Below, piece after piece: positions 590 through 21,947 of a stretch of 21,947 nt of DNA. Positions within the stretch are counted from its first letter, which is position 1, and each line of letters starts with the position of its first letter. Location of the stretch: positions 1-21,947 of the IMG/VR virus record IMGVR_UViG_3300030331_002892; one strand, given 5' to 3'. The translations under genes were made by a program, and so were the position numbers. The notes beneath the pieces were generated by a model. The model was not told the origin of the DNA, searched no databases, and saw only the letters and a list, made by a program, of their open reading frames with translations. This DNA comes from a virus.

Positions 590-897
590 CTCTCCCCAAA
601 TCAATCCACATAGCAGGAGTTCCTGTTAAGATTATTAGAGAAGACCTAAGCGATGAGAACAATCGTTCAAAAGGGTATTACGGATACTACTCTCACGAGC
701 GAAAAACCATAGTAATTGATTCGTCCTTAAAACCAGCAGAAATAAAATCAACAATTCGACACGAAATGATCCACGCCTCTCTCGCCTTCAGCGGCCTCGA
801 TAGATTGGATTCCTTTGAGGAAGAGAGTCTGGTAGTATGTATTGAAGAACTATTCTTTCCAGCATGGGAAAGATTCTGCAAAAGATTTAAAGTATAA
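586..897 (+). CDS. Small HExxH putative zinc metallopeptidase
   Basis: This 103-residue protein carries an HEMIH motif (His59, Glu60, His63), the classical zinc-binding and catalytic signature of gluzincin-type metallopeptidases. A run of acidic residues 16-17 positions later (Glu78-Glu80, followed by SLV) could supply the third zinc ligand. The size and layout, a beta-rich N-terminal half followed by the HExxH helix, resemble the small phage metallopeptidases related to SprT or ImmA/IrrE. I cannot assign it to one family. It starts inside the amidase stop codon (ATGA), and its own TAA overlaps the next ATG (TAATG), placing it in the left plus-strand operon. A substrate cannot be read from the sequence. 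Lysis assistance, virion maturation or cleavage of a host regulator are all possible. Confidence 0.65.
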   Translation: MTLPKSIHIAGVPVKIIREDLSDENNRSKGYYGYYSHERKTIVIDSSLKPAEIKSTIRHEMIHASLAFSGLDRLDSFEEESLVVCIEELFFPAWERFCKRFKV

Positions 898-6966: not shown

Positions 6967-8092
6967 ATTGGCTGACAATCGAGAACCGTTCGTCAGACGT
7001 GCGGATAATGCCCGCGCTTTCACAGGCGTCAATAAAATTGCGCTCGGCCTCTTTTTTTTCTCCTTTCGGAGCAGATGACCCGACAGCTTTAGCTACTTTT
7101 GCTAACGGGAAATTTGCATGCTCAAGTAAAGATTCTTCGGTCAATCCGAATTCTTCCGCAATCTGCGTAAGCGTTGCGTTGTCTGTAACCTTGCGTGACT
7201 TACCCATCGAACGAAGTTTCAGGCCGTCCAGTTCCATCCCGCCCATGGCCGCTTCCTTTGCGCGTTCCTTAATACGTGCTGCCCAGTTCTCTACAATCTT
7301 AGCAATGTTAAAAAGCTCAGTAAGCCTTGCAGGGTCGTCGATGTTTTCAAGGTCTACATCAGGCAGGGTGGAGTCTAACTTCTTAGCTACGTCAATAACC
7401 AGACCACCCAACGCAGGGCAGGAGTCTTCATGGCGACAGAACCGGCAGTATTGGGTTGGGTTACAATCCGAAAGTTCAGGCCCACCCTTCTCCCATTTCG
7501 GTCGGACACGTTCTCCTTTAGTAATCACATTACTGAGATCGTCGATAAGAGATTCTAGGTCATCCCTCTCAAACGTATGATGAAGACTGTCGTGGTGCTG
7601 GGGAACGTAGAAGACGAAGACGATTTTGTTGATGTCTTTGTATTTTTGAAAAGCACCTACGGTATATGCCTTTGCTTGCCAGTTGTGTTCAGGAGGGTCG
7701 ATGATGCTAATGCCTGTCTTGTAATCGGCCATCACCGCAGTAGCCCCTGAGTCTAATATCAAGAATCTGTCACAGGTGCCCCATGTCTTTGTTCCGTCTA
7801 ACTCAACATCAACTTGGATCTCGTTGTGCTCTTCCTTAATAGCTGAGAAGTTGCCCATGAAGTCTGCCTCCATCTCCACGATCTGATCGTAAATATCTGT
7901 CTCCTTCTCGTTATGCAGCGCAGAAGGATCACGAACTTCAAGAGCCTCGTGGATGCGGGTGCCCATCTCTGCTGCTGCGCTGGTTCCGTCTTTGCCCTGA
8001 TAAGCAGGGCAGGCAGCAACATATTTTAATGATGATGGGGAGAACTCAGCGTGTCCCCTGCTGCTATGGTCGGGTTGGTTCATGCAGGTCAT
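6965..8092 (-). CDS. DUF2800/Cas4-like PD-(D/E)XK exonuclease with Fe-S cysteines
   Basis: This 375-residue protein matches RecB/Cas4-type nucleases. SPSSLKYVAACPAY near the N-terminus gives Cys28. GTRIHE gives His48. WGTCDRF gives Asp108. MADYKTG gives Asp123 and Lys125. NWQAKAY gives Gln139. A C-terminal cysteine set (Cys216, Cys219, Cys225) pairs with Cys28 in the pattern known to hold a 4Fe-4S cluster in this superfamily. The DUF2800 branch typically sits between a helicase and an ssDNA-binding gene in phage replication loci, as here. Its likely task is DNA end processing in recombination-linked replication. It overlaps the helicase 3' end by 29 nt, and a second ATG at 8083 is an alternative start. 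Residues beyond 280 resemble no domain I can name. Confidence 0.83.
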   Translation of the reverse strand: MTCMNQPDHSSRGHAEFSPSSLKYVAACPAYQGKDGTSAAAEMGTRIHEALEVRDPSALHNEKETDIYDQIVEMEADFMGNFSAIKEEHNEIQVDVELDGTKTWGTCDRFLILDSGATAVMADYKTGISIIDPPEHNWQAKAYTVGAFQKYKDINKIVFVFYVPQHHDSLHHTFERDDLESLIDDLSNVITKGERVRPKWEKGGPELSDCNPTQYCRFCRHEDSCPALGGLVIDVAKKLDSTLPDVDLENIDDPARLTELFNIAKIVENWAARIKERAKEAAMGGMELDGLKLRSMGKSRKVTDNATLTQIAEEFGLTEESLLEHANFPLAKVAKAVGSSAPKGEKKEAERNFIDACESAGIIRTSDERFSIVSQ

Positions 8093-9368
8093 TAAGGTTA
8101 GCTAGTCTGGCGCTAATCGCTTTCATCACATGTTCTTCTATAGATCGGTTAGCTACCAGAATTTTCTGGATCGCATCGCTCTTGGCCCCGTTGCGGTGGA
8201 TACGGCCCAACGTCTGCATGTGGTTTTTAGCAGAAAATGATGGGCAGATTATCGAGACTCGCTGTCTCTCCCCACGCACATCGTGCAGACTAATACCCGT
8301 CCCGCCCGCCGCAATGTTGACGACGATCATATGTTTCTCATCGTTTTGAAACCTGTCGATAGCCTGCTGCCTTTCCGCTTCAGTTTGCCCTCCCTCGATA
8401 CGGTCGCAGCCAAGATTCTGACATAAGGTCTGGACTGTCTCTGCAAAGTTTACAAAAAGCACCACGCTCTTCCCTTCGTGGATAAGCTCTTCTGTGATAT
8501 CAACAAGATCCGGTATCTTAAATGACTCAGCTAACATACGCGCTCGTAAAATATTAACGAGCATATGCTCAGAGTCTTCGACTGTCCCGTGCTCGACATA
8601 CTGCTGCACAATCTCTGGTGTGATGCCAGCTTGTCGGTAGGCCGAACGGATCTTGGAGATATTGCTAAAGTCTAACGGCTCTACAATCACCCTGTTCTTT
8701 TTGAACGAGTCGGGGAAGTCATCAATCGTAAGACGGCTTACGTTATCGTCATACATAATCTCTCTGAGAGCAGGCAGCAAAGACCTCCTGATTAACTCCC
8801 ACTTACCCCATTCGTTTTTCTTGCAACCCCATTTTAACATCCACGAATACCAACTCCGCAATCCGTTGTCTGGTTTGTTGAGCGAGTGCAACCCTAACAT
8901 GTATCCCAGACCCCTCATCTCGGTCGGGTCTTCCGCTGCTGTTGCTGACATACCATGGATCGAATACCCATGCTGCCGGAGCGAGATGAGTAGCTGCGCG
9001 TTAAGTGTGTAGGGGCCTTTGCATTTATGGATCTCATCGATGAATACAAGCGTGTCATCGGGGAGGTGCCACCGCATGATCTTCTTTCCCACCTTAGTCA
9101 TGTGTGGGGTTTTACCTGTCCTTAGTCTTTCAAAGTTGAGGATAAAGATAGGAGATATATCCATCTCCGCCATCTCCCGCTGCCAACTCGGAACTACAGC
9201 TTTAGGACAGATCACGGCTACTGGCATACCTAACGTCTTAGCTAGGTAGCACCCAACGATAGTCTTACCTACTCCAGTGTGGGATGTATCACAGGTGCAT
9301 TTACCCTGTCGTTGTTTGGCAACAAACAAGTCGTGGATCTTTTGTTGCTTAGGATAAAGTGTCTTCAT
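8064..9368 (-). CDS. Superfamily 2 DNA helicase (DEIH type)
   Basis: The 434-residue protein has the full SF2 motif set. Walker A is HTGVGKT (residues 30-36). DEIH lies at 111-114 after VFI. SAT is at 141-143. Motif V is NIAAGGTGISL around 351-361. Motif VI is QTLGRIHR at 385-392, with the arginine finger. The arrangement is closest to SNF2-like phage helicases that accompany DUF2800 nucleases. It would unwind or remodel forks or recombination intermediates at the cost of ATP. A Cys pair (residues 24 and 26) just before Walker A is unusual but may mean nothing. The ATG overlaps the stop of the upstream small gene (TAATG), and no Shine-Dalgarno is visible. Confidence 0.9.
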   Translation of the reverse strand: MKTLYPKQQKIHDLFVAKQRQGKCTCDTSHTGVGKTIVGCYLAKTLGMPVAVICPKAVVPSWQREMAEMDISPIFILNFERLRTGKTPHMTKVGKKIMRWHLPDDTLVFIDEIHKCKGPYTLNAQLLISLRQHGYSIHGMSATAAEDPTEMRGLGYMLGLHSLNKPDNGLRSWYSWMLKWGCKKNEWGKWELIRRSLLPALREIMYDDNVSRLTIDDFPDSFKKNRVIVEPLDFSNISKIRSAYRQAGITPEIVQQYVEHGTVEDSEHMLVNILRARMLAESFKIPDLVDITEELIHEGKSVVLFVNFAETVQTLCQNLGCDRIEGGQTEAERQQAIDRFQNDEKHMIVVNIAAGGTGISLHDVRGERQRVSIICPSFSAKNHMQTLGRIHRNGAKSDAIQKILVANRSIEEHVMKAISARLANLNDLHEPTRP

Positions 9369-9628
9369 TAGTGTAAACGGTTACTAAGCATGGCGTGGAG
9401 TAAGATCATCCCTATGTGATATTTAGTCTGATTGAATCCTCGATATACCTTTTTGTGATGATCCGGAGTAAAGACTACAACGTCCCCGCTTTCGGTCTCA
9501 CTTATCCTAAAACCTAACTGGTGAGCGGGCTTAATAGCTTTCCAGTAGAAACTTGGTTTTTCCGCGACAGGCACATCGTGCTGCTCAAAGAACTCCTCTA
9601 CATGTTCCGGTCTGGTAAATCTAGGCAC
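9368..9628 (-). CDS. Unknown small protein (86 aa)
   Basis: I do not recognise this protein. It begins with a GTG (PRFTRPEHVEEFF), has a central strand-rich part (GDVVVFTPDHHKKVYRG) and ends in a helix (HIGMILLHAML). The GTG is preceded by an AAAGG about 7 nt upstream, one of the better ribosome-binding sites in this block. The stop overlaps the helicase ATG as TAATG, which supports a real, co-translated gene. The 40-nt gap to the resolvase gene upstream shows no clear hairpin or promoter. Placement suggests a helicase accessory role, but nothing in the sequence proves it. Confidence 0.62.
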   Translation of the reverse strand: MPRFTRPEHVEEFFEQHDVPVAEKPSFYWKAIKPAHQLGFRISETESGDVVVFTPDHHKKVYRGFNQTKYHIGMILLHAMLSNRLH

Positions 9629-9668
9629 GGGACGCCTTTACCACAAGAGCGTCAGATCACAAGAACAA

Positions 9669-10157
9669 TCAGTTTTTTTCCCGACTGTTGCGGTAATAGT
9701 GCGCGATCAGGAACGCATCAATCATCCCGTCATGGGGAGTGCGACACCTTTTATTCTTCAACCAGTTCTCAGCGGGAGCCATACGCTCGGCTGTATTCAA
9801 TGCCGCTACTTTGGTCATCCCCTTTGGGATAAAACCTAACATTTTCTTTTGCCACTTTTGAACACTGATTCGAGCAACCTCATACTCTTTGCACTCAGCC
9901 ATGCCTAACAACTTACCAAAAGAGATAGCCATCGAGCGGACTGCTTGAGAGCTTTTCGCATGCGCGAGAGGTTCTTCAATGGCCAGAACAAATAGAGTGT
10001 TTAAGTCAGACAACCATTGATGAATTTTTCGGATGTCTATCTCGCGTTTCTTGCTTCGCTGTCGGCAAGGCATAGCAATCTTGTCAATTACGCTACCATC
10101 GAAATTAGAAAGCGCACACAGCCCTCCCTCAAGGCCGTTGTCTACGCCGACAATCAT
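9669..10157 (-). CDS. RuvC-like Holliday junction resolvase
   Basis: The 162-residue protein has an RNase H fold signature of RuvC-type resolvases. IVGVDNG gives Asp6. LAIEEP gives Glu61 or Glu62. A C-terminal HDGMIDAFLIA gives Asp143 and Asp147. These four acids hold the two metals used to cut four-way DNA junctions. Phages use such enzymes to resolve recombination intermediates or trim branched DNA before packaging. I place the start at the ATG at 10157 because it overlaps the stop of the upstream gene (ATGA). The frame continues to another ATG at 10175, which would add six residues. The length fits the phage/poxvirus-like branch of short resolvases. Confidence 0.83.
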   Translation of the reverse strand: MIVGVDNGLEGGLCALSNFDGSVIDKIAMPCRQRSKKREIDIRKIHQWLSDLNTLFVLAIEEPLAHAKSSQAVRSMAISFGKLLGMAECKEYEVARISVQKWQKKMLGFIPKGMTKVAALNTAERMAPAENWLKNKRCRTPHDGMIDAFLIAHYYRNSREKN

Positions 10158-10357
10158 TTCTGGATGGCCATCCATCCAGCTTTATCTACGTTAGCTTTTA
10201 CCCGTCCCACGTAGCGATCAAGGATATACAATGTGACCTCAACATCAGTGATGTCTTTTTTCATCATTTCGGCTCTATCTACGAGCCATGATGCTAGATC
10301 TCTGCACCCTTTGGAGCACTCTTCTAAACGGGCTTCTTCAGCGATAGTTGTTTCCAT
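10154..10357 (-). CDS. Unknown small helical protein (67 aa)
   Basis: This short protein is rich in charged residues and mostly predicted helix. It has two cysteines near the N-terminus (CSKGC) and an amphipathic centre (DVEVTLYILDRYVGRVKANVD). No known domain is recognised. The ATG lies 2 nt after the stop of the upstream DUF1599-like gene, and its stop overlaps the resolvase start (ATGA). This tight spacing supports translation. The CxxxC pair is isolated and does not make a convincing zinc site by itself. Confidence 0.6.
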   Translation of the reverse strand: METTIAEEARLEECSKGCRDLASWLVDRAEMMKKDITDVEVTLYILDRYVGRVKANVDKAGWMAIQK

Positions 10358-10359
10358 CT

Positions 10360-10689
10360 CTATTCTGATTTAGTTTCTGCCTCTTCGCGTAGTAAAGCTT
10401 TGCAAAGAATAGCGTAGTTTACGATGTCGTCGCACGCATCCTCTACAGATTCGTTCATCACGCGAAGTTCTCCATCAGCCACGAATGACCGTATCCTCAT
10501 TATCTTGTCCTGAACACGAAGCAGGAGTCCGGTTACAGGGTGCAGGTTGAGGGCTAAAGATGCTTTGAAGTTGGCCAGCGCATCAGTGGCTCCAGAACCT
10601 CCGGTATAGTCGGAGTTTTTCTGCCGCATAATCTCTTGAGCTGCATCACAGGTTTCTTTATGGATCTCAAGCAGACGGTCAGTGTTCAT
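10360..10689 (-). CDS. DUF1599/MazG-like nucleotide-associated protein
   Basis: The 109-residue protein has the layout of small all-alpha phage proteins related to DUF1599, also called nucleotide-modification-associated domain 1. KNSDYTGGSGATDALANFK lies near residue 25, GLLLRVQDKIMRIRSF in the middle, and an acidic helix ESVEDACDDIVNYAIL at residues 80-95. The spaced Glu/Asp residues of that helix resemble the metal site of MazG-type nucleoside triphosphate pyrophosphohydrolases. The likely role is handling of unusual or excess nucleotides during phage DNA synthesis, inferred from family. The ATG overlaps the upstream stop (ATGA). Confidence 0.7.
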   Translation of the reverse strand: MNTDRLLEIHKETCDAAQEIMRQKNSDYTGGSGATDALANFKASLALNLHPVTGLLLRVQDKIMRIRSFVADGELRVMNESVEDACDDIVNYAILCKALLREEAETKSE

Positions 10690-10922
10690 GATTGTAGTGG
10701 CGCAACGGTGTCTCGGATAACTACCCCATCCCCATCGGCGGGGACTTCCAAGGTATCTCCCTTCTCAAGAAGTTTAAGGTAACAGATCTCTTTCCAGTTA
10801 TCGGGGATAACTCGATAAAATGTCCCTTTCGCTTGAGTGACACGATAAGTGAATTTGTTTTCTCCTAAATCTTTTCGCCGTAGAACCATAGGATCTTCGA
10901 TGATCTGTCGAAAGAGAAACAT
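10686..10922 (-). CDS. Unknown small protein (78 aa)
   Basis: No family is recognised. The sequence is beta-leaning (KFTYRVTQAKGTFYRVIPDNW, then DTLEVPADGDGVVIRDT), which suggests a small barrel or sandwich. Two ATGs compete: 10922, which is 4 nt after the upstream stop, and 10889 (MVLRRKDLG). The first fits the packed pattern of this operon. The stop overlaps the DUF1599-like start as ATGA. Function unknown; its position is early in the replication operon. Confidence 0.58.
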   Translation of the reverse strand: MFLFRQIIEDPMVLRRKDLGENKFTYRVTQAKGTFYRVIPDNWKEICYLKLLEKGDTLEVPADGDGVVIRDTVAPLQS

Positions 10923-10926
10923 GGCT

Positions 10927-11196
10927 TCACGTTTTTAAGAATGCTGGAGGTGACTTACCTTTAGCGTTTTGAGACAGATAGTCAATCAAATTGGAAGCTG
11001 CGTTGATAGAGATATTCCAGTTAGACGAAATGATTGCAGCAGCTATAGGGTGGCTATAGCAAGATACAGGCGGGCCGTTAGGGTGATAGACCACCCCAAT
11101 ATAAGCTTCTTCTAAGTCATTTAGCAGACTCAGAGTTAGATGCCCTTCAACATCTTCATCATCGTCGAACTCAATACTAAATCTATCCGTCCACAT
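10927..11196 (-). CDS. Unknown small acidic protein (about 89 aa)
   Basis: No family is recognised. An acidic patch (FDDDEDVEGH) follows the N-terminus, then a segment with Pro/Gly turns (YHPNGPPVS) and a C-terminal helix ending in basic residues. Three nearby in-frame ATGs at 11214, 11202 and 11196 are possible starts, all inside the end of the HTH gene. I prefer 11196 because it gives the shortest overlap (14 nt). Its tight placement between the HTH protein and the next small gene supports co-expression, but its role is unknown. Confidence 0.55.
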   Translation of the reverse strand: MWTDRFSIEFDDDEDVEGHLTLSLLNDLEEAYIGVVYHPNGPPVSCYSHPIAAAIISSNWNISINAASNLIDYLSQNAKGKSPPAFLKT

Positions 11197-11785
11197 TGCC
11201 ATCGCTGTCCACATCGATCACGGTTTTACCCTTCATCTTGTCCAGCGATCCCTCACCCTTATCAGCGTTGGAATTATTAAGTATGGAAATATCTATTTGC
11301 ATGCGGCTTGCACCGCCCCCTGTCTTGGCATTCAGGCCAAGGTTCCTTCTGATAAGCTGATCTAGTTCTGACATCTCGCGGACAGTCTTCGGACCCTTGA
11401 TGTTTATCATGCTGTCCCGCAATAGTTTGATGCCTGCCGCCGCTACGTAGTGCTGGTATTTGTCAGCGGGGCTGTTTTGAGATTCTGCAATCTCGGCGAG
11501 AATCTTGTCCTCTTCTTTTGACGCAGCGAGTTTTGCTTCGGTCGCTGCTTCGCGGGTCATCTCAGACAAATGCACCTCCAGATCTTCTTTGAGTGTGTCT
11601 TTATCGGCCTCTTTGTTTGGTAACTTGAACCCAGCCTTCTTTGGGGGTAAACCAAGCTTCTTAAACCAACGGCGCACAGTGCCTTGATGGACACCTAACC
11701 TTCTACCTATAGCTGCATTCGTCATACCCGCTGCATTCAACCGCAGGGCTTCTTGCACTATTTCGGTATTGCCTTCGCTCGACAT
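11183..11785 (-). CDS. HTH protein, candidate terminase small subunit
   Basis: The 200-residue protein has an N-terminal helix-turn-helix (residues about 12-42, with MTNAAIGRRLGVHQGTVRRWF), a charged helical middle (about 60-110) and a flexible C-terminus. That order, DNA-binding HTH then oligomerising helices, is typical of small terminase subunits, which select phage DNA for packaging. It is the neighbour of the large terminase gene, which strengthens the idea. However, it lies on the opposite strand and heads the replication operon, so a transcriptional regulator is the main alternative. Only 33 nt separate its ATG from the large terminase ATG, so divergent promoters would have to lie within the two coding regions. 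Confidence 0.62.
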   Translation of the reverse strand: MSSEGNTEIVQEALRLNAAGMTNAAIGRRLGVHQGTVRRWFKKLGLPPKKAGFKLPNKEADKDTLKEDLEVHLSEMTREAATEAKLAASKEEDKILAEIAESQNSPADKYQHYVAAAGIKLLRDSMINIKGPKTVREMSELDQLIRRNLGLNAKTGGGASRMQIDISILNNSNADKGEGSLDKMKGKTVIDVDSDGNVDG

Positions 11786-11818
11786 GATAACAACAGTAGA
11801 CTCCGATCTGATTTAACC

Positions 11819-13606
11819 ATGCCGTCCGATCCAAATAAACGCAAGCGTGTTCTCGAACCACGAATAGACTCGCAAACAAAAAAGATGGACATTGGTGGTT
11901 TGGTAATACCACCAACAAGTCTGATCACAGCTTTGTTATACGGTTTTGCACACCACCCCAAAGTAATCGCAAAGGAGTATTATTTCTGGCGAATTTGTGA
12001 CGAGCTATGGAACCACGAGGATTTACCGGAACCTATGATGGTCAAGCACCCATGGGCAGAGCAGATGATACGCGCCGCCCTCAACAACAAATATTTGTCG
12101 ATTGGTGGTTCTGCATCATCAGGTAAGTCACACACGATGGCCGCATGGGGGATTGTGAACTGGTTATCACAACCACGAGACACGCTGGTCTTGATGACCT
12201 CAACCACATTACGCGAAGCACGTAAGCGGATATGGGGTTCGGTCATGTCGTTGCTGTCCGTGATCGACGGAGCACCAATCAAGATAAGGGATTCAATAGG
12301 CAACGCTGCTTATGTAGACGAGAAAGAAACGCTTATCGAACGGGCTGGTTTGTCGCTTATCGCCGCAGAGAAGCAAAAGACCAGAGATGCTGTTGGTAAA
12401 TTTATTGGTCTAAAGCAGAAGCGAGTGATTTTGATCGGGGACGAGCTGGCAGAACTGTCAGAGGCAATAGTCAATGCTGGCCTGACTAACCTGTCGAAGA
12501 ACCCGTTTTTCCAAATGATCGGCATGTCTAACCCGAACTCAAGGTTCGACGCATTTGGCGTATGGTCAGAACCCAAAGACGGCTGGGAGTCGGTAGACAT
12601 CCAGACAGCCGACGAATGGAACACAAAGTGGGGCGGCAAATACATCCGGCTAGATGGAGAGCGCAGCCCAAATGTTATACTAGGCGAGACGAAATATCCT
12701 TGGCTCCCGACTGAGGCTAAGTTGCAAGAGGACCGTCTACTGCTCGGGCCGGAATCAAGGGGTTACATGCGAATGGTCAAGGCTATCTTTTTTGACAGCG
12801 ACGAGACAACAGGCATTTACGCAGAATCCGAACTATCTACCAGCGGGGCCTTGGGTAGTGTCGAGTGGGAGAGCACCCCGACAGTGGTCGCCGGTATCGA
12901 CCCCGCATTCACGAACGGGGGCGACAGGACAATCATGTTCACCGCAGAAGTTGGATACGCCCGCAACGGACAGTATGTCTGCCAGTTCAAGGATGCGATC
13001 CACTTGAACGATGATGCCACCAACAAGGCCGTGCCTCGGACATATCAGATCGTCAACCAGATTATAGAGCACTGTAAGAAGCGCAAGGTGTCCCCAGAGA
13101 ATGTGGCGGTTGACTCCACTGGCGCGGGGGCTCCGTTCTGTGACGTGTTGGCTGGCGAGTGGTCGCCTAATTTTATGCGGGTCACGTTTGGCGGTAAGGC
13201 ATCCGACAAGCGTGTGTCTATGAACAGCCAGCTTACTGGTGAAGAACTCTACATGAACCGTGTATCTGAGTTATGGTTTGTGGGTAAGGAACTTATGAGG
13301 ACTAAACAAGTATATGGCGTAAGTTCTGATCTTGCACAAGAGATGTGTGCGAGGAACTATGACATGATCAAAAGCTCCACACTGAAGATGAAGATTGAGT
13401 CTAAGCCGGAGTTTAAGTCTCGGTTCGGTCGCAGCCCTGACTTGGCAGATGCTGCATTCCTTGCGCTAGACTGCGCCCGCCAGAGATTAGGGCTCGTGGC
13501 TATCGACCCACCGAAAGAGGATCAGGCTACAGGGTTCAGGAGACGGGTTACAATCCAGTCGTTAGGGCAGTCGTTGGAGAACCCTGACACGAGTTTGATG
13601 TCGTAA
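11819..13606 (+). CDS. terL: Terminase large subunit (ATPase and nuclease)
   Basis: This 595-residue packaging motor has an N-terminal ATPase and a C-terminal RNase H-like nuclease. Walker A is GGSASSGKSHT (97-107), Walker B is VILIGDE (203-209) and the coupling motif is MIGMSNP (234-239). The nuclease acids are Asp361 (GIDPAF), Asp432 (AVDSTGAG) and Asp541/Asp544 (SPDLADAAF). The protein pumps DNA into the prohead and cuts concatemers. The frame is open from 11753, but that part lies within the divergent HTH gene. I take the ATG at 11819 because MPSDPNKRKR is typical of such N-termini and the longer version would overlap the neighbour's coding region. The next plus-strand gene follows after a 135-nt gap with regulatory-looking structure. 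Confidence 0.93.
   Translation: MPSDPNKRKRVLEPRIDSQTKKMDIGGLVIPPTSLITALLYGFAHHPKVIAKEYYFWRICDELWNHEDLPEPMMVKHPWAEQMIRAALNNKYLSIGGSASSGKSHTMAAWGIVNWLSQPRDTLVLMTSTTLREARKRIWGSVMSLLSVIDGAPIKIRDSIGNAAYVDEKETLIERAGLSLIAAEKQKTRDAVGKFIGLKQKRVILIGDELAELSEAIVNAGLTNLSKNPFFQMIGMSNPNSRFDAFGVWSEPKDGWESVDIQTADEWNTKWGGKYIRLDGERSPNVILGETKYPWLPTEAKLQEDRLLLGPESRGYMRMVKAIFFDSDETTGIYAESELSTSGALGSVEWESTPTVVAGIDPAFTNGGDRTIMFTAEVGYARNGQYVCQFKDAIHLNDDATNKAVPRTYQIVNQIIEHCKKRKVSPENVAVDSTGAGAPFCDVLAGEWSPNFMRVTFGGKASDKRVSMNSQLTGEELYMNRVSELWFVGKELMRTKQVYGVSSDLAQEMCARNYDMIKSSTLKMKIESKPEFKSRFGRSPDLADAAFLALDCARQRLGLVAIDPPKEDQATGFRRRVTIQSLGQSLENPDTSLMS
11892..11915. repeat. Short inverted repeat in the start of terL
   Basis: An 8-bp perfect inverted repeat (arms 11892-11899 and 11908-11915, loop 8 nt) lies 71 bp into terL. 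It could be an operator or simply a result of the GGLVIPPT codons. It is recorded because promoters for the divergent HTH gene would have to lie in this stretch. Confidence 0.45.
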
Positions 13607-13741: not shown

Positions 13742-14035
13742 GTGGCGTCAAAAAGATTCAAACGTCTTCCCTCCGGTCGAATCCAGTATATGGGGGAGTC
13801 ATATGCTGGCTTCAATAAACCTAAAAGAGCGCCTAAAGGATCTAAGAAAAAGTTCGTCGTGTTAGGTAAGCAGGGCGACAAGATTAAAAAAGTGTCGTAT
13901 GGACATCGTGATTACAGCGATTTCCGTAAACACAAGAACCCTAAACGCAGAGCTAACTTCCGCGCTAGGCACAACTGCGCGACAGCAAAAGACAAGACTA
14001 CTGCCCGCTACTGGGCATGCAAACACCTTTGGTAA
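13742..14035 (+). CDS. Small basic phage protein of unknown function (97 aa)
   Basis: The protein reads ASKRFKRLPSGRIQYMGESYAGFNKPKRAPKGSKKK, then FVVLGKQGDKIKKVSYGHRDY, and ends ANFRARH-x-CATAKDK-x-SARYW-like (KTTARYWACKHLW). This is a pattern I recall from small proteins of marine phages and other large viruses, with no known function. I prefer the GTG at 13742 since the family consensus begins around ASKRF. An AAAGG lies 13 nt before it. The longer TTG-initiated frame would put coding sequence over the promoter-like boxes. The very basic character suggests nucleic acid contact, which is inference. The stop is 2 nt before the next ATG. Confidence 0.72.
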   Translation: MASKRFKRLPSGRIQYMGESYAGFNKPKRAPKGSKKKFVVLGKQGDKIKKVSYGHRDYSDFRKHKNPKRRANFRARHNCATAKDKTTARYWACKHLW

Positions 14036-14037
14036 TC

Positions 14038-14778
14038 ATGGCATTAAAAGGCACAGTATCGAAAGAAGAAGAAGAAGAGTTTACAAAAGCTCCACCACTG
14101 CCTGCGACGGGGACAGTTCAGACACAAGAAGCTATCCCATTAGTAGGCCCGCCTAAAGCGGCTATGATGAAAAGTGCTCGTGGCACTTTGGCAAACCCCA
14201 TCACTGGGGCAACAGAAGAAGATAGGAGAAAAGGTTACACACTCGCCTCTGAAGATACAGGACCACTTGGGTTTAAAGATAAGGGTCTTGTCAATATGGA
14301 TAACCTCCAAGGATTAGATATTGGCGCAGACATACAACGCAACAAGATGACCGAAGTATCTGGAGGAGGAGTTCGCCGCCAAGACTTTGCAACTGATGCG
14401 GCCTTTGAGTCCGCTGTAGCTAGAGACAATCAGCAAGAACCTATCGGATCTGGCAGCTCCCTTCGTCAAGCCCCTCGCAGATTAGGAACTCTTTCGGGCG
14501 ATATGCGACGAGCAGCAAGGGCCGCTCAACGTGCTGGTGCGACGAGCGCGGCTAATCAACTTTTTGGTGCTGCCGCTATGCAAGGGCTCAAAGAACCCGG
14601 AATCTTGAGTCAGGAACAACGAGGCCGGATTGCCGCCAAACAACAAGAGGCGCAAGATTTGTCACAGCAGAATCTAAATCTACAAAAAAGATATGTCGAT
14701 TACGCCACACGAGTCATGGATAAACGGATAGCGGATTTAGATAAAGGCGGGATAAGAACAATGGAACAACGCTACTAA
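14038..14778 (+). CDS. Probable virion-associated protein, unknown family (246 aa)
   Basis: No domain is recognised. The N-terminus holds an acidic run (KEEEEEF), followed by a long region rich in Gly, Pro and Thr that looks disordered (residues about 20-130). An Ala/Arg/Gln-rich helical C-terminal half follows (RRAARAAQRAGATSAANQ, then AAKQQEAQDLSQQNLNLQKRY). Such compositions are frequent in phage internal or tail-associated proteins. The order small, medium, giant protein recalls the internal core proteins of podoviruses. The start is the ATG 2 nt after the preceding stop; an earlier in-frame ATG lies inside the preceding gene. The stop overlaps the next ATG as TAATG. Confidence 0.68.
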   Translation: MALKGTVSKEEEEEFTKAPPLPATGTVQTQEAIPLVGPPKAAMMKSARGTLANPITGATEEDRRKGYTLASEDTGPLGFKDKGLVNMDNLQGLDIGADIQRNKMTEVSGGGVRRQDFATDAAFESAVARDNQQEPIGSGSSLRQAPRRLGTLSGDMRRAARAAQRAGATSAANQLFGAAAMQGLKEPGILSQEQRGRIAAKQQEAQDLSQQNLNLQKRYVDYATRVMDKRIADLDKGGIRTMEQRY

Positions 14779-15809
14779 TGGCTACTATCGCATTTAACAG
14801 AGACATCGCACCTCTTCGCTCACAGTTTTTCCCTGTGGGCGGTTTGCGTCAATCGGAGTTTGCACAACTGCAAGCTATTGACCAACAGATGCAGCCAGCT
14901 CGTGATCAGCAAATGAAGCTGGTCAACAACATGCTCAACCTGCAACAACAAGAGTTAGCTTTTGAACGGTCGCAACTTGCGCTCGATAGCGCCCGCCGAA
15001 AATCAAAGATGGAAGTAGACGCAATGGGTCAGTTACCTGCTTTGAGTCAGCGGCTCGAAGAAATCTACAGCGACGATTCTAAAGACTCATTTCAAAAAAC
15101 CAAAGAAATTGCTCAAGTTAAAATGGGCTACGCAACTACATTGCAGTTTAGTCCTGCAATGCAAGACATGTTTACTTCTGCTTCATCTGCTGTGCAGGCT
15201 GACGCCGCCCGCGAAAGACAGAAACAAGCCGAAGCTAAAACCATAACAGGCTCTGCGTTCCAGATCGCTCAGCAAGGCGGTGATGTTGAATCCCTGCTCA
15301 CTGATCCTGATTCACAAGGGGGTGCTAACATAACGGCTGGAGAACGGGCTGTTCAGGTTCTTGCTGACACAGCGAAGAAGCGTTCTAAAGATAGTCTGGA
15401 GAAAGAGCGAATACAGTTAGAGAGAAGACAAAAAGAAAAACAAGATGCTTCTCTCAAGCAAGATTTGCTTAGAGCACAAGACACACTTAACAAACTAGAT
15501 GTCGTTGATCAGGGAGATATGTTTGAGCGTCTTATCGCTGCAAGAGAAAGAGGAGAAGAAATAGATTTTTCTAATCTTCCAGAGCCTAAAGACACTAGCT
15601 TTGAGTATACGCAAGAGTCTTTACAAGACCTACAAGAGCTAATGCTAAACTTGAACCCCAGTCTTGATGAGGATTTTGTTCGCAACGCCGACCCTGAACA
15701 ACTTCGGCGAGCAGCTCTTCGCACCACTTTCAAAAAACTCAGAGAGCTAAGCCCTGTTGCTCCTGCTCCTTCACCTGCTGCGAGTGCTATTCGTAGCTCC
15801 TTCGACTAA
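14778..15809 (+). CDS. Probable internal virion protein with coiled coils (343 aa)
   Basis: The 343-residue protein is Gln/Ala rich and largely helical. A first coiled-coil candidate covers residues about 27-75 (QLQAIDQQMQPARDQQMKLV and on) and a second about 200-245 (SLEKERIQLERRQKEKQ and on). The C-terminus has a Pro/Ala linker-like tail. There is no enzymatic motif. It starts in a TAATG overlap with the preceding gene and stands directly before the giant frame, an arrangement like that of podovirus inner-core proteins. This is inference from order and composition. A scaffold or tail-needle protein is an alternative. Confidence 0.7.
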   Translation: MATIAFNRDIAPLRSQFFPVGGLRQSEFAQLQAIDQQMQPARDQQMKLVNNMLNLQQQELAFERSQLALDSARRKSKMEVDAMGQLPALSQRLEEIYSDDSKDSFQKTKEIAQVKMGYATTLQFSPAMQDMFTSASSAVQADAARERQKQAEAKTITGSAFQIAQQGGDVESLLTDPDSQGGANITAGERAVQVLADTAKKRSKDSLEKERIQLERRQKEKQDASLKQDLLRAQDTLNKLDVVDQGDMFERLIAARERGEEIDFSNLPEPKDTSFEYTQESLQDLQELMLNLNPSLDEDFVRNADPEQLRRAALRTTFKKLRELSPVAPAPSPAASAIRSSFD

Positions 15810-15841: not shown

Positions 15842-18800
15842 ATGACTGATTTTGAAATCCTCATGGGGGAGTCGCCTAAAGCGGCCCCGTTAGAAATAAA
15901 GAAGTATTCTGACTGGTCTAAAACTGCTCCTCCCGCAGAGGACGACATCCAGAACAGAAAAGCGTTTAGTGATTACATTCGAGAGGAGTATCTCAAAGCC
16001 GATCAATACTCGGTTGATGTAGAAAGCGAGATTAGGGATAGCCTACGTTCTTCTTTAGTTGAAAACGGCCTTGTTGAAGAAGGGGATACAGACACGATTA
16101 ATTCTTTGTATACCGCTAAGGAGCGGCCATTTGACAACAAGGTAGATCTAATCCAGTCGTCGATTGATTTCCAGACCGACCCAGACTGGGAGGTTATTAC
16201 AAGGTATAAAGCGTTAGCTAAGATAGACGATCCTACTGTTGAGACTTCTGACAAGCTTGAGCAGGCCAGACTTCAGGTTGAGCAAATTGTAGCTAATCGT
16301 TTTGACGATGTAAAAAGGAGCTTGGTTCATAACGGAGAGCTAGCTTTTGCGTTTGTAAAAGGTGAGGACGGAGAACAAGAGCTAATTGCAGGAGATCGCG
16401 CAACCAAGAGTGATTTTTTAACTGCCCTCAAAGATTCAAAAATTGGTGGAGTGCAGTTGTCTGATGCGTTTATTGCTCAACAACAAATACAACTACAAGA
16501 AGGCACAGACATACCGCGCTACAAATACAAAAGATTGCGGGAAGCCCACGCCATGATGACTGATCTAGTAAAAGAAGATCAGCTCTTTAGGTATCAGGTA
16601 TCGGGACACGGCACTAGGCTAGCAACTGGAGAATACGATAAAGGTGACATTTGGCAGATGATGCTAAATGAAACCGGCCAAGACATTACTGATGCCGCTG
16701 GATGGTTGATCGGCAAAGTCACTGGTGGGGATCAAGACGAGCGCACTGCTGCTGAGCGTGAAAAGCGTCAAGCCATAGCTAAGGCAGGTAATGTAAACTT
16801 TGATGAGGCGACTCAACTTTTGGCAAAACGACTGAACAGTGTCGGGGAGGGTCGAGGCAGTGATGCTTTCACATTAGAAGAGGTCCAGAGTGCTTATAAG
16901 CAACTGATTTTAGATGATGCTAATTCAAACAATAAGTTTGAATTCCACGATGAGGACGACGAAGTAGGTAAGAACATCAGAACCTACGGGTATCTGGGGC
17001 CTGTCGTCCATCCCGCTGCGATGGCCAACGAAAAAGTCTTCGATAAGATGTTGGCTGCTCGTCCTGACGTGGAAGATTCTGTAAAGGACACCCTGAAAAA
17101 AAGTCGTGTAGCTTTCTTAGAGAGCAACTTTAGCGGTATGAGCGACCTTCTCCTCCGCTCAGGAAAGGCCGACGAATGGTCTGAGGCTCTGACCAAGGGG
17201 AGGGCAACAGGTAAAAAGAACCACGAGATACTTTCTGATTACTTATCGGACGAAGATAACTACAGCAAGTTTGCCGAAGGCACTAAGGGTATTGCGTGGT
17301 CTTTGTGGGATTCGGTTACACAGCTAGCGGCTGCTGTTCCCGCTGCGTTTGGTGCAGAGTGGGCTCAAAATACTTTGATGTCTTCTGCTAGACGTAACTC
17401 TGACCGGCGTGAAGTTGCTAATTTGTTTGGTGAAGAGTTTGGATTTGTCCAAGACATCGGGGAGACTATTGCCCCCCTGCTTGTTGATGTCGCAGCTACT
17501 GCGACTCTTGCGACTGTAACAGCCCCCGCCGCAGGAGCAGGCGGCGCTGCATACCTAGCTGCTCGACAAGGCGCACGACTGACAGCTAAAGGTTTTGGTA
17601 AGGCTCTTACTAGCTCTGTGTTTAGGACTACAGGAACAGAAGGCGCAGAAAAGGCTGCCCAAAAACTACTCACAGAAAACCTAATTAAGCAGTCTGTTAA
17701 AGATGGAGGGTCTGAGGGAGCTGCTGCTGCAATCAAAGGCTACAATAGTCTTGTAGCCCAGAGGTTTGGTATCGCTTCGGCTTCTTTCATACCCGCAGCC
17801 ACTAGGTCTGGAGGTGCTACCTATGGAACACTCTTTAACGAGTTATCTAAAAGCACCGATTTAAGTAGAGAAGAAATACACGACCGCGCATTAGGTGGCG
17901 CATTAGTAGCGGGTGCTTTCACGGGTTTCATCACCGCTGGTTTTGGTGCCCTTGGACGAGGCGGTGTAGAGGACGCTTTGCTAAAAGGCATGCCGTTCAA
18001 AGACCTATCAAAAACTCTGAAGTCTATTGCGAATACTAAAGGCATTGACGATACTGTTGTAGCCAATGCTTTTGCAAAGGTAGCAGCGGCGCAGCAGAAG
18101 CTTTACAAGTTTGCAGGGTCTAAGTCTCTTCTAGGGAATGCAAAAGACGAAGCGATAGAGGAAGGTCTCGACGAATTCATCAATGGGTTTGTTACTGATG
18201 CTGTCTTGAGCGAGAACACGCCGATGCTGGACCGCATGAGTCAGTCTCTTTACGCCGGTATGTTAGGCGGTGTTATGGGAGCTGGTGCCCCTGCAATTAG
18301 AAAAGTTTCAGAAAAAGTCCGGCCTAATAAGTTTAATCGCGCAGCTCAAGCTGCTAAGTTAGCTAGAGATTTTGACGAGCAAGTAGCAAAAGAGTTAGAA
18401 AACACAGGCAGTCCGTTAACTGCTGAGGCTGTTCGTAACAGAAGACGACAAGCAGCTCGTGAGCGTGGGGAGTTTCTCCCCCGTGATCCTGAAGCTGAGG
18501 CAGCCCCCGTTGCTCCAACACCAGAAGCAGAGGCAGAGGCAGAGGCTGCACCAGAGGCAGAGGCTGCACCAGAGGCAGAGGCTGCACCCGCACCTCCTGA
18601 GCAGTTGACGCTTTTTGCTGGGGGTAGAACCCGTGAAGCGCAGGCCGACGCCTTTGTAAAGAAGGTCGATGAAGCCCTTAACACTGATGAAGGACAAGCT
18701 GAGCTACAGAGGGCTATTTCCAACTTCGATGCCAAACAAGATTTGTTGTCTAATGATACTAGGAGTAGCGTTGCCCTCGACGTAAACCCTGAAGTTAGAA

Positions 18801-21800
18801 AAGACGTTGCTGATCTGACCTACCCACTAGCCAGCCAAAACAAAGAGTATGTCGCAGGTCTTTTGGGTGTTGATGTTGTAGACCTTATAGTGAGAGAAAA
18901 CAGCAGCCTGTCGCTGAATGACTATCTCCCCAAGCAAGACCTCAAGTTTGTTAAACAGGCAGAAGTGAGAACGGCTCCTTCTATGGAAGGTATAGACGTA
19001 TCTGAGACAGGTGATTTTGATCTGTCCCCTTTTAAAACAGGCGCGACAATATCAGATACCGAAAAAGCAGAGGCGATGGATTACGCCAAGCTTGCTGTTC
19101 GGTTTGGCGTTCCCGTTCGCGTAACTTCAGATGCGCGGTTTGGTTTGCCAAAGTCGAAAGGTTACTCTGATAAATCAGATTTCTTGGCAAAAGTTGTATA
19201 CGACCGTTACCCGATTATCCCTGTCGATGCTGTAGGCAGGGACACTTTCAAAAGCAGCCGGAAGAAAACTTACTTCGATCCAGTCACAGGAAAGAAAAAA
19301 GTAGATGGACGCCTTGAGGGTGTCTTAGACGACAGCGGGCGAGTTATTTTTAACAACGACCCTGTGATGATTGCAGAAATGCTCTCGAACAAACAGCCTG
19401 TCTTAGCTCCTGAAGAGGGGGCTGAAAACATAAACCCAGCTTTTAAGATAGTAGATGATAGGGTCGTCGATGTTTTTAGGCCTTCGCTCGACGGCAACCT
19501 AAAAGAGTCTTTAATTACCCCAATTCAAAAATCAGGGTCGCTAGAGCTGAACCACGACTTGTATTATGCTCAAGCAGGAGTCCCCTTCATCAAGGACTTT
19601 GACAAGGTTCTGCCCGCTGGCGCTATGGGAGTCAGTATTGAAGGAGGTAAATATGGGGATGTCTCGCTAGGTGGCCAAACGATTGGAGACCTAGACCAAC
19701 AACTCCGTGCTTTTGATCGGGCTTATAGAAATGACGAGGCTTCTTTCAATACATTCTTCACTACTTACGGGGGAGCGCAGCTACGAGAGTCTGCTCCTGA
19801 TGCGTTGCAGGCTGCGTTTATTGAGATGAGGTTGTCGGCCAACCTGTTTGAGTTGCGGACAGAACTTCTAAAGGAAGGCTCTGGTCTGACAGAAACAATC
19901 GGGAACAACTTAATAGTTGCCCCAAGCAAAAAGAAAAAAGTCGTCAAAACCGTGCTTGGCCGCATGAAGACGCAAGACAAGAAGACAGTAGCAGGTAGAT
20001 TAAAGCCTTTGGTTTCTACCACTCAGTCAAAGTCCCCAACTAATACTGATATTATTATTCAGTTTGTTGAGGAGCAGGTTCTTAACAACTCTGACTTTGA
20101 TGGCAACAACATGCCTACGTTCTCTAGTTTGCTGAGCAGGAGCGTCGGTAGATATGTCGCGCAAGAAAAATCAAGGGGCATACACGAATCCGAAAGAGTC
20201 ATAACAAACATGACTGATGAGGCAGCGCGAGATGCCGCTGGCCTTGCTAATGCCGAAAACCAAGCTTTGTATTTAGGTGGCCCTGTTGGAGAAACCGTAA
20301 GCCCCCAAGTTATCCCTGATGTTGTTGCTCGAAACATAGACGATGCGGTTTCTGCCATTGATGAAGACCCCGAACTTCGTGAGGCCCTTAGCGATATAGC
20401 TTTCCAGTCTCTGTATCCTGACCCTGACCCAGAGATGGTGGCCTATGTCACCAACATGAAAACCCCTTATCTGCTTAACAAGATAGGTGGATGGATGGCC
20501 GCTAACCCTACTAGCCGTGAAGTTGTAGAGTTCGTAAACCTTCTCGAAGGTCGTAGGGGGATCAGATTCCGATCAGGAAGTATTCTCGCAATTGCTCTAA
20601 AAGGTAATGGACTAGGCAGCCGTGTCGATGGAGACCCCACAAAAGATAACGATCAGATTCTTTATGTGACGGAGCAGCTCAAGAAGGCGGGGCTAGCTCA
20701 AGAACCAACTAGAGAACAGGCCATAAATTTCATAAAAAGCATCGACGGACCTATCAGGCGTCTGATGTCTAAGTCTCACCTTACAGAGGCAGAGCGTCAG
20801 CAAGCAGAGATTGACAACGCCCGTGACATGGAGCGATTGGGCTTGGTCTCAGGAGATCCAGAGTCGGTTGTTCAAGCTCTTACTCAAATTGCTAATACCA
20901 GCAGTAACCCTAATCATAAGTTGGTCGCTGAGATGCTGTTGGAAGATCCGAACTTCATACGGAATGTCCGGTTCGCCACCACCTCATCACCACTAGTAGA
21001 TGCCGCAGGAGAGTATCATAAAGGAAAAGATGGAACCCATCGAGTTATCATCAACCTTGCTCAAGGTAACGGGAGAGGTTTGGAGAATGTTCTCCTCGAA
21101 GAATACCTTCACGCTACTACTGCCGACATTATCGCCAAAGACGAGTCGCTGCTCACTAAAAGGCAGAGGCTAGCCAAGCAGAGATTGCAGGGACTCAAGA
21201 CTCTCGCAGAGAAACAATACGAGATTGATAGGAAGACACTCAAAAGAAACCCAATTCTCGAAGACGGCTTTGTAAACTTAGAAGAGTTTGTGGCATCCAT
21301 AATGCTGTCGCCTGATTTCCAACAGCACATCAGAAGCTTAGCGACCCCAAGGGGTGAGCGGGGATTCTTCCAAAGAATCGTTGATGCTATTGCTAGCTTC
21401 TTTAGAAAGGTTACAAAGCGCGAAGGCCGCCAGTTTGCTCAAGCTATCGAGGATGTAGTTAGCCTCGGACCTAAGAAGCTGTATACCGTGAAGGCTTCAA
21501 TGATGTCTACAGTTGCCCACAAAGCAGCAGAGGACGCTAAAGCAAACGCGCAGCGTAGGAGTGAGACAAGTGAAGACAGCCTTACCGGAAGAGAGATTGC
21601 TGAAGAACCAACTACTCAAGACAGGAGACAAGAAGGCCCTGCCCGCCCGCTAGACCAAGAGCCTGATGTGGCAGCAGCGATTGAAGAAAGCAACGGAGAA
21701 GCAGCTACCTCTGAAGAGCAAGAGGTTGGAGAGGAAATCATACTCTTCTTGAAATCCATTATGCCCCTTGGATCGAATCTCAGGACCGATCCAAATCAAG

Positions 21801-21947
21801 ACGGACCTATAGGCGCACGAGGGCTTGATGTTGTTATCAATGTTAAGCTCCTTCTAGCTGAGTTGTCCGACATGGATACAGTATCTCAAAAGAGATACGT
21901 CCAGTCTCTCGTCAATGAAGAGCTAGCGCATGTTGCATCTTACGGGT
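15842..21947 (+). CDS. Giant open frame, probable internal virion or polyvalent protein (5' part, >2,035 codons)
   Basis: I read this frame codon by codon from the ATG at 15842 to the window end and found no stop, so the protein exceeds 2,035 residues. Residues 1-480 are charged and mostly helical. Hydrophobic Gly/Ala-rich segments lie near 543-576, 683-707 and 803-818 and could insert into a membrane. A low-complexity EAEAAP linker follows at about 885-920. Two metallopeptidase-like segments lie near the end: EEYLH (1753-1757), followed by EFVAS, and EELAH (2026-2030). In both, the first His of a canonical HExxH is replaced by Glu. Giant multidomain proteins like this are known as phage polyvalent or ejection proteins that enter the host with the DNA. 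That role is inferred. No Shine-Dalgarno precedes the ATG. Confidence 0.85.
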   Translation, partial: MTDFEILMGESPKAAPLEIKKYSDWSKTAPPAEDDIQNRKAFSDYIREEYLKADQYSVDVESEIRDSLRSSLVENGLVEEGDTDTINSLYTAKERPFDNKVDLIQSSIDFQTDPDWEVITRYKALAKIDDPTVETSDKLEQARLQVEQIVANRFDDVKRSLVHNGELAFAFVKGEDGEQELIAGDRATKSDFLTALKDSKIGGVQLSDAFIAQQQIQLQEGTDIPRYKYKRLREAHAMMTDLVKEDQLFRYQVSGHGTRLATGEYDKGDIWQMMLNETGQDITDAAGWLIGKVTGGDQDERTAAEREKRQAIAKAGNVNFDEATQLLAKRLNSVGEGRGSDAFTLEEVQSAYKQLILDDANSNNKFEFHDEDDEVGKNIRTYGYLGPVVHPAAMANEKVFDKMLAARPDVEDSVKDTLKKSRVAFLESNFSGMSDLLLRSGKADEWSEALTKGRATGKKNHEILSDYLSDEDNYSKFAEGTKGIAWSLWDSVTQLAAAVPAAFGAEWAQNTLMSSARRNSDRREVANLFGEEFGFVQDIGETIAPLLVDVAATATLATVTAPAAGAGGAAYLAARQGARLTAKGFGKALTSSVFRTTGTEGAEKAAQKLLTENLIKQSVKDGGSEGAAAAIKGYNSLVAQRFGIASASFIPAATRSGGATYGTLFNELSKSTDLSREEIHDRALGGALVAGAFTGFITAGFGALGRGGVEDALLKGMPFKDLSKTLKSIANTKGIDDTVVANAFAKVAAAQQKLYKFAGSKSLLGNAKDEAIEEGLDEFINGFVTDAVLSENTPMLDRMSQSLYAGMLGGVMGAGAPAIRKVSEKVRPNKFNRAAQAAKLARDFDEQVAKELENTGSPLTAEAVRNRRRQAARERGEFLPRDPEAEAAPVAPTPEAEAEAEAAPEAEAAPEAEAAPAPPEQLTLFAGGRTREAQADAFVKKVDEALNTDEGQAELQRAISNFDAKQDLLSNDTRSSVALDVNPEVRKDVADLTYPLASQNKEYVAGLLGVDVVDLIVRENSSLSLNDYLPKQDLKFVKQAEVRTAPSMEGIDVSETGDFDLSPFKTGATISDTEKAEAMDYAKLAVRFGVPVRVTSDARFGLPKSKGYSDKSDFLAKVVYDRYPIIPVDAVGRDTFKSSRKKTYFDPVTGKKKVDGRLEGVLDDSGRVIFNNDPVMIAEMLSNKQPVLAPEEGAENINPAFKIVDDRVVDVFRPSLDGNLKESLITPIQKSGSLELNHDLYYAQAGVPFIKDFDKVLPAGAMGVSIEGGKYGDVSLGGQTIGDLDQQLRAFDRAYRNDEASFNTFFTTYGGAQLRESAPDALQAAFIEMRLSANLFELRTELLKEGSGLTETIGNNLIVAPSKKKKVVKTVLGRMKTQDKKTVAGRLKPLVSTTQSKSPTNTDIIIQFVEEQVLNNSDFDGNNMPTFSSLLSRSVGRYVAQEKSRGIHESERVITNMTDEAARDAAGLANAENQALYLGGPVGETVSPQVIPDVVARNIDDAVSAIDEDPELREALSDIAFQSLYPDPDPEMVAYVTNMKTPYLLNKIGGWMAANPTSREVVEFVNLLEGRRGIRFRSGSILAIALKGNGLGSRVDGDPTKDNDQILYVTEQLKKAGLAQEPTREQAINFIKSIDGPIRRLMSKSHLTEAERQQAEIDNARDMERLGLVSGDPESVVQALTQIANTSSNPNHKLVAEMLLEDPNFIRNVRFATTSSPLVDAAGEYHKGKDGTHRVIINLAQGNGRGLENVLLEEYLHATTADIIAKDESLLTKRQRLAKQRLQGLKTLAEKQYEIDRKTLKRNPILEDGFVNLEEFVASIMLSPDFQQHIRSLATPRGERGFFQRIVDAIASFFRKVTKREGRQFAQAIEDVVSLGPKKLYTVKASMMSTVAHKAAEDAKANAQRRSETSEDSLTGREIAEEPTTQDRRQEGPARPLDQEPDVAAAIEESNGEAATSEEQEVGEEIILFLKSIMPLGSNLRTDPNQDGPIGARGLDVVINVKLLLAELSDMDTVSQKRYVQSLVNEELAHVASYG
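18536..18589. repeat. Three tandem 18-bp units encoding EAEAAP
   Basis: Three near-identical 18-bp units (18536-18553, 18554-18571, 18572-18589) encode residues 899-916 of the giant protein as EAEAAP repeats. Less regular Glu/Ala/Pro codons flank them on both sides. This is a likely flexible linker between the hydrophobic N-terminal part and the C-terminal domains, expandable by slippage without frame change. Confidence 0.9.

What the first reader, a model, noticed from the sequence alone, without database searches (positions are those of the whole stretch)
21041..21947. Two EExxH metallopeptidase-like motifs in the giant protein, both lacking the first zinc His
At residues 1734-1757 a V-I-I-N strand is followed by LLEEYLHATT. 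At 1996-2030 a D-V-V-I-N strand is followed by LVNEELAHVAS. Both look like the beta-strand plus HExxH helix of a zincin, yet both have Glu in place of the first His. The first copy is followed by an EFVAS segment, where related phage domains have their third ligand. Two copies with the same substitution suggest a retained, altered site (structural, or a different metal) rather than random decay. This may be an undescribed repeat domain in a virion-delivered protein.
Basis: partly seen in the sequence, partly recalled or inferred. Interest (0 to 1): 0.62.

Follow-up and report, generated by a model that had tools for sequence, protein, structure and literature searches.

The report
Altered zincin sites in phage protein
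A giant protein of a marine virus of bacteria, probably one injected with its DNA, carries one clear and one likely copy of a protein-cutting fold whose metal-holding histidine has been swapped for glutamate; relatives keep the swap, so the site looks maintained and possibly retuned rather than broken.

Summary
EEYLH (21098-21112) and EELAH (21917-21931) lie in one open frame (15842 to the window end).

Domain 1 (D1) is a zincin fold. Its AlphaFold model (pLDDT 91.5) best matches the PhiM1 tetrameric ejection protein (Z 10.6) and the N4 vRNAP C1 domain (Z 8.7), then classical zincins. Those ejection-protein relatives have HExxH.

Domain 2 (D2) shows no sequence similarity to D1, but its predicted strand/helix order is the same. 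Its zincin assignment is likely, not proven.

In marine relatives position 1 of both motifs is only Glu or His. Pairs (D1,D2) over 56 contigs: E/E 34, H/E 11, E/H 8, H/H 0. The catalytic Glu, second His and third-ligand Glu are invariant in 42 distinct rows; Glu codons vary silently.

The residue seven after the third-ligand Glu tracks position 1 without exception. D1: His with Thr/Ser, Glu with Leu/Val/Phe. D2: His with Glu, Glu with Gln/Asn.

This indicates a maintained, altered site, most likely a carboxylate-rich metal site, not decay. Metal identity and catalysis are untested. H-to-E swaps are known in other HExxH families; this is a new variant of a known kind.

The parts
15842..21947 (+). 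Giant open reading frame (2035 codons, 3' end outside the contig); homologues are mostly about 3,500-4,900 aa where the frame is not cut by the contig
14017..14778 (+). Small upstream gene (253 aa) of the cassette that precedes the giant ORF; similar-sized genes precede it in L008, L067 and (195 aa) L038
   Evidence: position only
14778..15809 (+). 343-aa gene directly upstream; similar-sized genes with a like N-terminus (MAEFSYxxDIAPM...) precede the giant ORF in L008, L067 and L038
20816..21490 (+). Domain 1 (D1), zincin fold, residues about 1659-1883
   Evidence: AF2 pLDDT 91.5, pTM 0.89; VIA-align Z 10.6 to 8vb2_A, 8.7 to 9pnt, then classical zincins
21044..21055 (+). D1 strand V-I-I-N (N1738 invariant)
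21098..21112 (+). D1 motif EEYLH (E1753 in place of first zinc His; E1754 catalytic position; H1757)
21284..21286 (+). D1 third-ligand Glu E1815 (in N-L-E-E-F)
   Evidence: invariant 42/42; aligned with HExxH outgroups
21305..21307 (+). D1 +7 residue (position 1822), coupled to motif position 1
21605..21947 (+). Domain 2 (D2) region, N-terminal part only; cut by the end of the contig
   Evidence: full domain read in L002, L003, L008, L009 and others
21827..21841 (+). D2 strand D-V-V-I-N
21917..21931 (+). D2 motif EELAH (E2026, E2027, H2030)

Best explanation
D1 (firmly) and D2 (probably) are zincin-fold domains in a giant ejection-type (internal virion) protein of marine phages. In both, the first metal-ligand His of HExxH is Glu, giving an E-E-x-x-H ... 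E site. The site is under purifying selection and has a co-varying residue that probably lies in its second shell. It most likely still binds a divalent metal through Glu, His and Glu, with the second Glu still placed as general base. Replacing one neutral imidazole by a carboxylate should weaken Zn preference and favour harder ions (Mn, Fe, Mg, Ca). The most likely job is a metal-stabilised structural and assembly domain of the ejected protein, with slow or conditional (auto)peptidase activity possible. Shown: fold of D1, homology, conservation, coupling. Inferred: metal binding, metal type, catalysis, virion delivery, zincin fold of D2.
For: D1 fold: model; and 120 matches to PhiM1 TEP, N4 vRNAP C1, KMV-like internal core proteins, Spartan and other zincins. 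Profile hits to 9sfn internal virion protein (E 7e-7) and PhiM1 gp48 (E 5e-4), to phrog_2206 vRNAP (18 of 45 members) and phrog_87 metallo-protease (9 members). Conservation: position 1 only E or H in both domains; E2, H5 and E3 invariant in 42 distinct rows. Silent GAA/GAG and CAT/CAC mixture, with no Q or D, which are the one-step intermediates between His and Glu codons. A motif-blind scan returned 29 loci, all on contigs already tabulated as EExxH. Coupling: D2 His with Glu at +7 in 10/10 loci, Glu with Gln/Asn in 60/60; D1 His with Thr/Ser in 20/20, Glu with Leu/Val/Phe in 61/61 (loci counted with redundancy). HExxH D1 domains from N4-like, KMV-like, crAss-like and Vibrio phages obey the rule, and so does L062 by eye (VHEYAH, Ser at +7). 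In D2 that column carries all the information about position 1, far above any other column. Functional precedent: EExxH in ZIP8/ZIP14; replacing it by HExxH in ZIP8 abolishes Mn transport (PMC10457451).
Against: No metal, activity or virion data. The coupled D2 switch happened only 2-3 independent times (sign test cannot reach significance), and D1 switched once on the tree, where many other columns also differ between the two sets. D2 has lower model confidence, no zincin hit of its own and no library family. A pseudo-enzyme could in principle keep the residues for fold stability.
Confidence: 0.6

Rival explanations
1. Pseudo-zincin: the metal site is lost, and the E-E-x-x-H-E residues are kept as a hydrogen-bonded polar core that stabilises the fold of an ejection protein that must refold after passing the tail.
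For: Loss of one of two His ligands is expected to weaken or abolish Zn binding; pseudopeptidases with altered motifs are common (PMC11266112). In D1 the switch to Glu goes with Leu at +7, removing a polar partner.
Against: Position 1 is only E or H, never Q, D, N, R or A, whereas pseudopeptidases listed in PMC11266112 show scattered losses at several positions. D2 switches between E and H with matched Q/E partners, which suits a working site that tolerates two ligand sets.
Confidence: 0.25
2. Active metallopeptidase with a changed metal: EExxH is a fully competent hydrolytic site that self-processes the giant protein or cuts host proteins after ejection.
For: Catalytic Glu, second His and third-ligand Glu are invariant in 42 distinct rows. 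Iyer et al. propose autoprocessing or effector roles for such domains (PMC5512222).
Against: N4 vRNAP with intact HExxH is packaged unprocessed (PMC5512222). No cleavage data; a Glu ligand lowers the Lewis acidity of the metal.
Confidence: 0.2
3. Ferritin-like di-metal site: EExxH is also a usual motif of four-helix diiron proteins.
For: Motif match. D2 is mostly helical, and weak matches to ferritin-like chains appear for the D2 part of the model (3fse, 4v6b, Z about 5).
Against: D1 is clearly a zincin with three strands before the motif helix. D2 also has three strands before it, and its natural His-type members read HExxH.
Confidence: 0.04
4. Chance motifs or annotation artefact.
For: The protein is 8% Glu, so the short motif is not rare by itself.
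Against: Both motifs sit at alignment columns conserved in some 50 contigs, many sampled by patterns that avoid the motif.
Confidence: 0.01

Closest known systems
N4 (Schitoviridae) virion RNA polymerase gp50, C1 domain, residues 2124-2375 (PDB 9pnt; PMC12633501)
   Same: Same zincin-like fold as D1 (Z 8.7, 186 residues, rmsd 4.6); profile homology to the N4-like proteins of Acinetobacter phages XC38, At2 and nACB1; giant proteins of about 3,300-3,500 aa
   Different: HExxH intact; carries an RNA polymerase module that was not detected here; no D2 detected in the N4-like proteins examined
PhiM1 tetrameric ejection protein gp48, residues 288-506 (PDB 8vb2; PMC11440229)
   Same: Best structural match of D1 (Z 10.6, rmsd 2.8 over 143), profile E 5e-4; third-ligand Glu aligned
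   Different: LLHEAAHA (intact HExxH); about 1,260 aa; the authors call residues 268-528 endolysin/exotransglycosidase-like, whereas the comparison here points to a zincin
KMV-like internal virion protein / internal core protein (PDB 9sfn_G; Pseudomonas phage phikF77)
   Same: D1 homologue (E 7e-7); Thr at +7 follows the rule
   Different: HExxH intact; about 1,340 aa
Polyvalent-protein zincin-like MPTase domains (Iyer et al. 2017, PMC5512222)
   Same: Helix, three strands, motif helix, helix with Glu; one or more copies in giant phage proteins
   Different: The text describes HEXXH and HEXXXH forms, not EExxH
EExxH in ZIP8/ZIP14 metal transporters (PMC10457451, PMC5661630)
   Same: Same H-to-E change in an HExxH metal-binding motif, linked to Mn and broader metal specificity
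   Different: Unrelated membrane transporters; analogy only
H1-to-E changes surveyed in HExxH families, frequent in peptidase family M2 (Lenart et al. 2013, PMC3650047)
   Same: Same substitution, about twofold over-represented in HExxH families
   Different: No coupled second-site residue or two-domain pattern is described in the passage read

Membership tests
Zincin-like metallopeptidase (gluzincin type) | Fold: helix, three-stranded sheet, motif helix, C-terminal helix | tested here: met
   D1. D2 only by predicted order of elements
Zincin-like metallopeptidase (gluzincin type) | HExxH motif (first His) | tested here: not met
   E1753 and E2026; E in 44 of 55 contigs scored for D1 and 46 of 54 for D2 or nearly so, His in the rest
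Zincin-like metallopeptidase (gluzincin type) | Catalytic Glu and second His | tested here: met
   42/42 distinct rows in both domains
Zincin-like metallopeptidase (gluzincin type) | Third-ligand Glu on a following helix | tested here: met
   D1 E 42/42; D2 EE 40/40
Zincin-like metallopeptidase (gluzincin type) | Bound zinc and peptidase activity | not testable with these tools
   needs protein
N4 vRNAP C1 / polyvalent MPTase domain | Sequence and fold homology to the N4 C1 domain | tested here: met
   D1:
N4 vRNAP C1 / polyvalent MPTase domain | HEXXH or HEXXXH active site | tested here: not met
   EExxH in both domains
N4-type virion RNA polymerase (whole protein) | Single-subunit RNA polymerase module | tested here: inconclusive
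   No match of the whole-protein profile to a solved RNA polymerase or to a PHROG/Pfam RNAP family outside D1; weak search
Ejection (internal virion) protein | Present in the virion and ejected | not testable with these tools
   Inferred from D1 homologues and giant size
Ferritin-like diiron protein | Four-helix bundle with two ExxH carboxylate motifs | tested here: inconclusive
   D1 is a zincin; D2 model has three strands before the motif helix, weak ferritin-like hits

The most novel reading that the evidence does not exclude
EExxH with its co-varying +7 residue is an alternative, interchangeable zincin active site: marine phages switch a domain of an injected protein between His-type (Zn) and Glu-type (Mn/Fe/Ca) metal sites by a paired substitution, and never keep both domains in the His form at once.
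Probability: 0.22. Interest if true: 0.75.

Novelty: new variant of a known kind. Interest (0 to 1): 0.52.

Why it matters
The role of the zincin-like domain in N4 vRNAP and other ejection proteins is unknown. A natural clade in which the first ligand is Glu, with a specific partner residue, gives matched natural pairs (H-type and E-type) to ask whether the domain needs metal, which metal, and whether it cuts anything. D2 is a conserved domain with no family in Pfam or PHROGs above noise. The comparison also points to a re-reading of the PhiM1 TEP 'endolysin-like' domain as a zincin.

Tried and rejected
Direct repeat (D1 = D2): profile comparison gave probability 1.3-1.5. Pfam, PHROG and PDB sequence searches with D2: nothing above noise. 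Whole two-domain model in Foldseek: no useful match; the VIA second look recovered PhiM1 TEP, Spartan and lethal factor for D1, and only helical look-alikes for D2, so the D2 fold is open. Foldseek of D1 alone against PDB gave no match under E 0.001; the ejection proteins appeared only in the VIA second look and in the viral library. Named phages encoding D2: tblastn with L002 found none. An N4-like motif-blind scan gave only two near-identical loci. Chance motif and frame artefact rejected by conservation. Genome relatives cannot be drawn for a virus record. Signature of an RNA polymerase module in the giant protein: none found.

Full report
Observation. The window is one viral contig of 21,947 bases. 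A frame starting at 15842 runs off its end (2035 codons). EEYLH is at residues 1753-1757 (21098-21112) and EELAH at 2026-2030 (21917-21931), each after a strand ending in Asn. There is no HExxH in the 2035 residues. Residue shuffles give 0.116 EExxH on average, and two or more in 0.46%. The motif alone is weak evidence; what follows is the test.

Relatives. Close relatives come from IMG/VR contigs and a few MAG contigs, mostly marine. Their giant frames are mostly about 3,500-4,900 aa where the contig does not cut them. In the named-phage collection only the D1 region finds anything, first in N4-like Acinetobacter phages, where the aligned motif is HELVHA and the third ligand is NVEEF.

Fold of D1. 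A profile of 41 D1 sequences matches two solved proteins: an internal virion protein (9sfn_G, E 7e-7) and the PhiM1 tetrameric ejection protein gp48 (8vb2_A, E 5e-4), both with HExxH. The AlphaFold model of the window's own D1 (225 residues, 45 sequences) has pLDDT 91.5 and pTM 0.89, with helices, three strands, the motif helix, and later the helix carrying E1815. VIA-align ranks 8vb2_A first (Z 10.6, 2.8 A over 143 residues), N4 vRNAP gp50 residues 2124-2366 second (Z 8.7), then Spartan SprT, anthrax lethal factor, VgrG2b and a minimal zincin. The viral library gives internal core proteins, virion-encapsulated RNA polymerase, large polyvalent proteins and crAss-like proteins. So D1 is the zincin-like domain of podovirus ejection proteins. 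Iyer et al. described it in N4 vRNAP as a metallopeptidase (PMC5512222), and the N4 structure paper notes its HExxH (PMC12633501).

D2. The window holds only its start. Read in relatives, it runs [E/H]ExxH, about 60-75 residues, then EExLR and a conserved tail G-x-T-T-E-E. In the two-domain model of L003 it shows helix, three strands, motif helix and a later helix with the Glu pair, the same order as D1, at moderate confidence. It has no Pfam or PHROG family above noise and no detectable similarity to D1. A zincin assignment for D2 is likely, not shown.

Conservation. Over 56 contigs, position 1 is only Glu or His in both domains. Pairs (D1,D2): E/E 34, H/E 11, E/H 8, H/H 0; three contigs lack one value in that table, and one of these, L062, reads VHEYAH in D1 by eye. 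In 42 distinct rows the second Glu, the His and the third-ligand Glu are invariant. Codons for Glu at position 1 are a mixture of GAA and GAG (19:13 in D1, 21:15 in D2), so silent changes occurred while the residue stayed. His to Glu needs two base changes through Gln or Asp, neither of which is seen. The D2 scan used patterns outside the motif. A later motif-blind D1 scan returned 29 loci, all on contigs already in the table as EExxH in D1. On trees, D1 changed once and D2 two to three times. Because N4-like, KMV-like, crAss-like and Vibrio phage D1 domains are HExxH, Glu is derived in D1.

Coupled residue. Comparing His-type and Glu-type rows, D2 has one other column that switches completely: the residue seven after the second Glu of the EE pair. 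It is Glu with His (10/10 loci) and Gln or Asn with Glu (60/60); that column carries all the information about position 1, well above every other column. In D1 the residue seven after its third-ligand Glu is Thr or Ser with His (20/20 loci, including the outgroups) and Leu, Val or Phe with Glu (61/61). Loci are counted with redundancy, and one Glu-type locus has a gap there. In D1 alone this could be lineage noise, since many other columns also differ between the sets; the same offset in D2 is what makes it notable. My inference is that this residue sits in the second shell of the first ligand: a carboxylate supports a ligating His (as Asp170 does for His142 in thermolysin, from general knowledge), and an amide supports a ligating Glu.

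Mechanism. The pattern argues for a maintained site with an altered ligand. The closest functional precedent is ZIP8/ZIP14, where HExxH is EExxH and replacing it by HExxH in ZIP8 abolishes Mn transport (PMC10457451). H1-to-E changes are about twofold over-represented in HExxH families and frequent in M2 peptidases (PMC3650047). I therefore favour a carboxylate-rich metal site with reduced zinc preference in a structural/assembly domain of an ejected protein. Peptidase activity is possible but unproven; a pure pseudo-zincin is the main rival.

What is new. D1 is a known kind. EExxH in this ejection-protein family, the strict E/H choice in two domains, the coupled +7 residue and the D2 domain were not found in the papers and libraries searched. 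A side result is that the PhiM1 TEP region called endolysin/exotransglycosidase-like (residues 268-528, PMC11440229) matches a zincin with intact HExxH.

Noticed in passing
window 586-897 (+): A 103-aa stand-alone protein with an intact HExxH (RHEMIHA), matching phrog_1233 (E 1e-14) and phrog_87 metallo-protease (E 2e-6): the phage also encodes a small zincin-like protein of the normal type.
   Followed up: partly
PDB 8vb2_A, residues 288-506 (PhiM1 TEP): The domain described by its authors as endolysin/exotransglycosidase-like matches the zincin domain by profile and fold and has LLHEAAHA.
   Followed up: partly
L062 (IMGVR 3300000115_000069), residues about 1243 and 1724 of the giant ORF: This relative has an extra HExxH (VIAHELGHAAH) upstream of its D1, whose own motif is VHEYAH; its D2 is EExxH.
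   Followed up: no
L079 (crAss-like cr53_1), ORF at 7506-12635: N-terminal D1-type domain with LHEIVHA and Thr at +7 in a long uncharacterised protein next to another giant gene.
   Followed up: partly
L042 (IMGVR 3300017775_000003): A distant D1 (29% identity) with EEYFHA and Phe at +7: possibly an independent H-to-E change.
   Followed up: no
all relatives: No contig has His in both D1 and D2; with so few independent switches this may be chance.
   Followed up: partly
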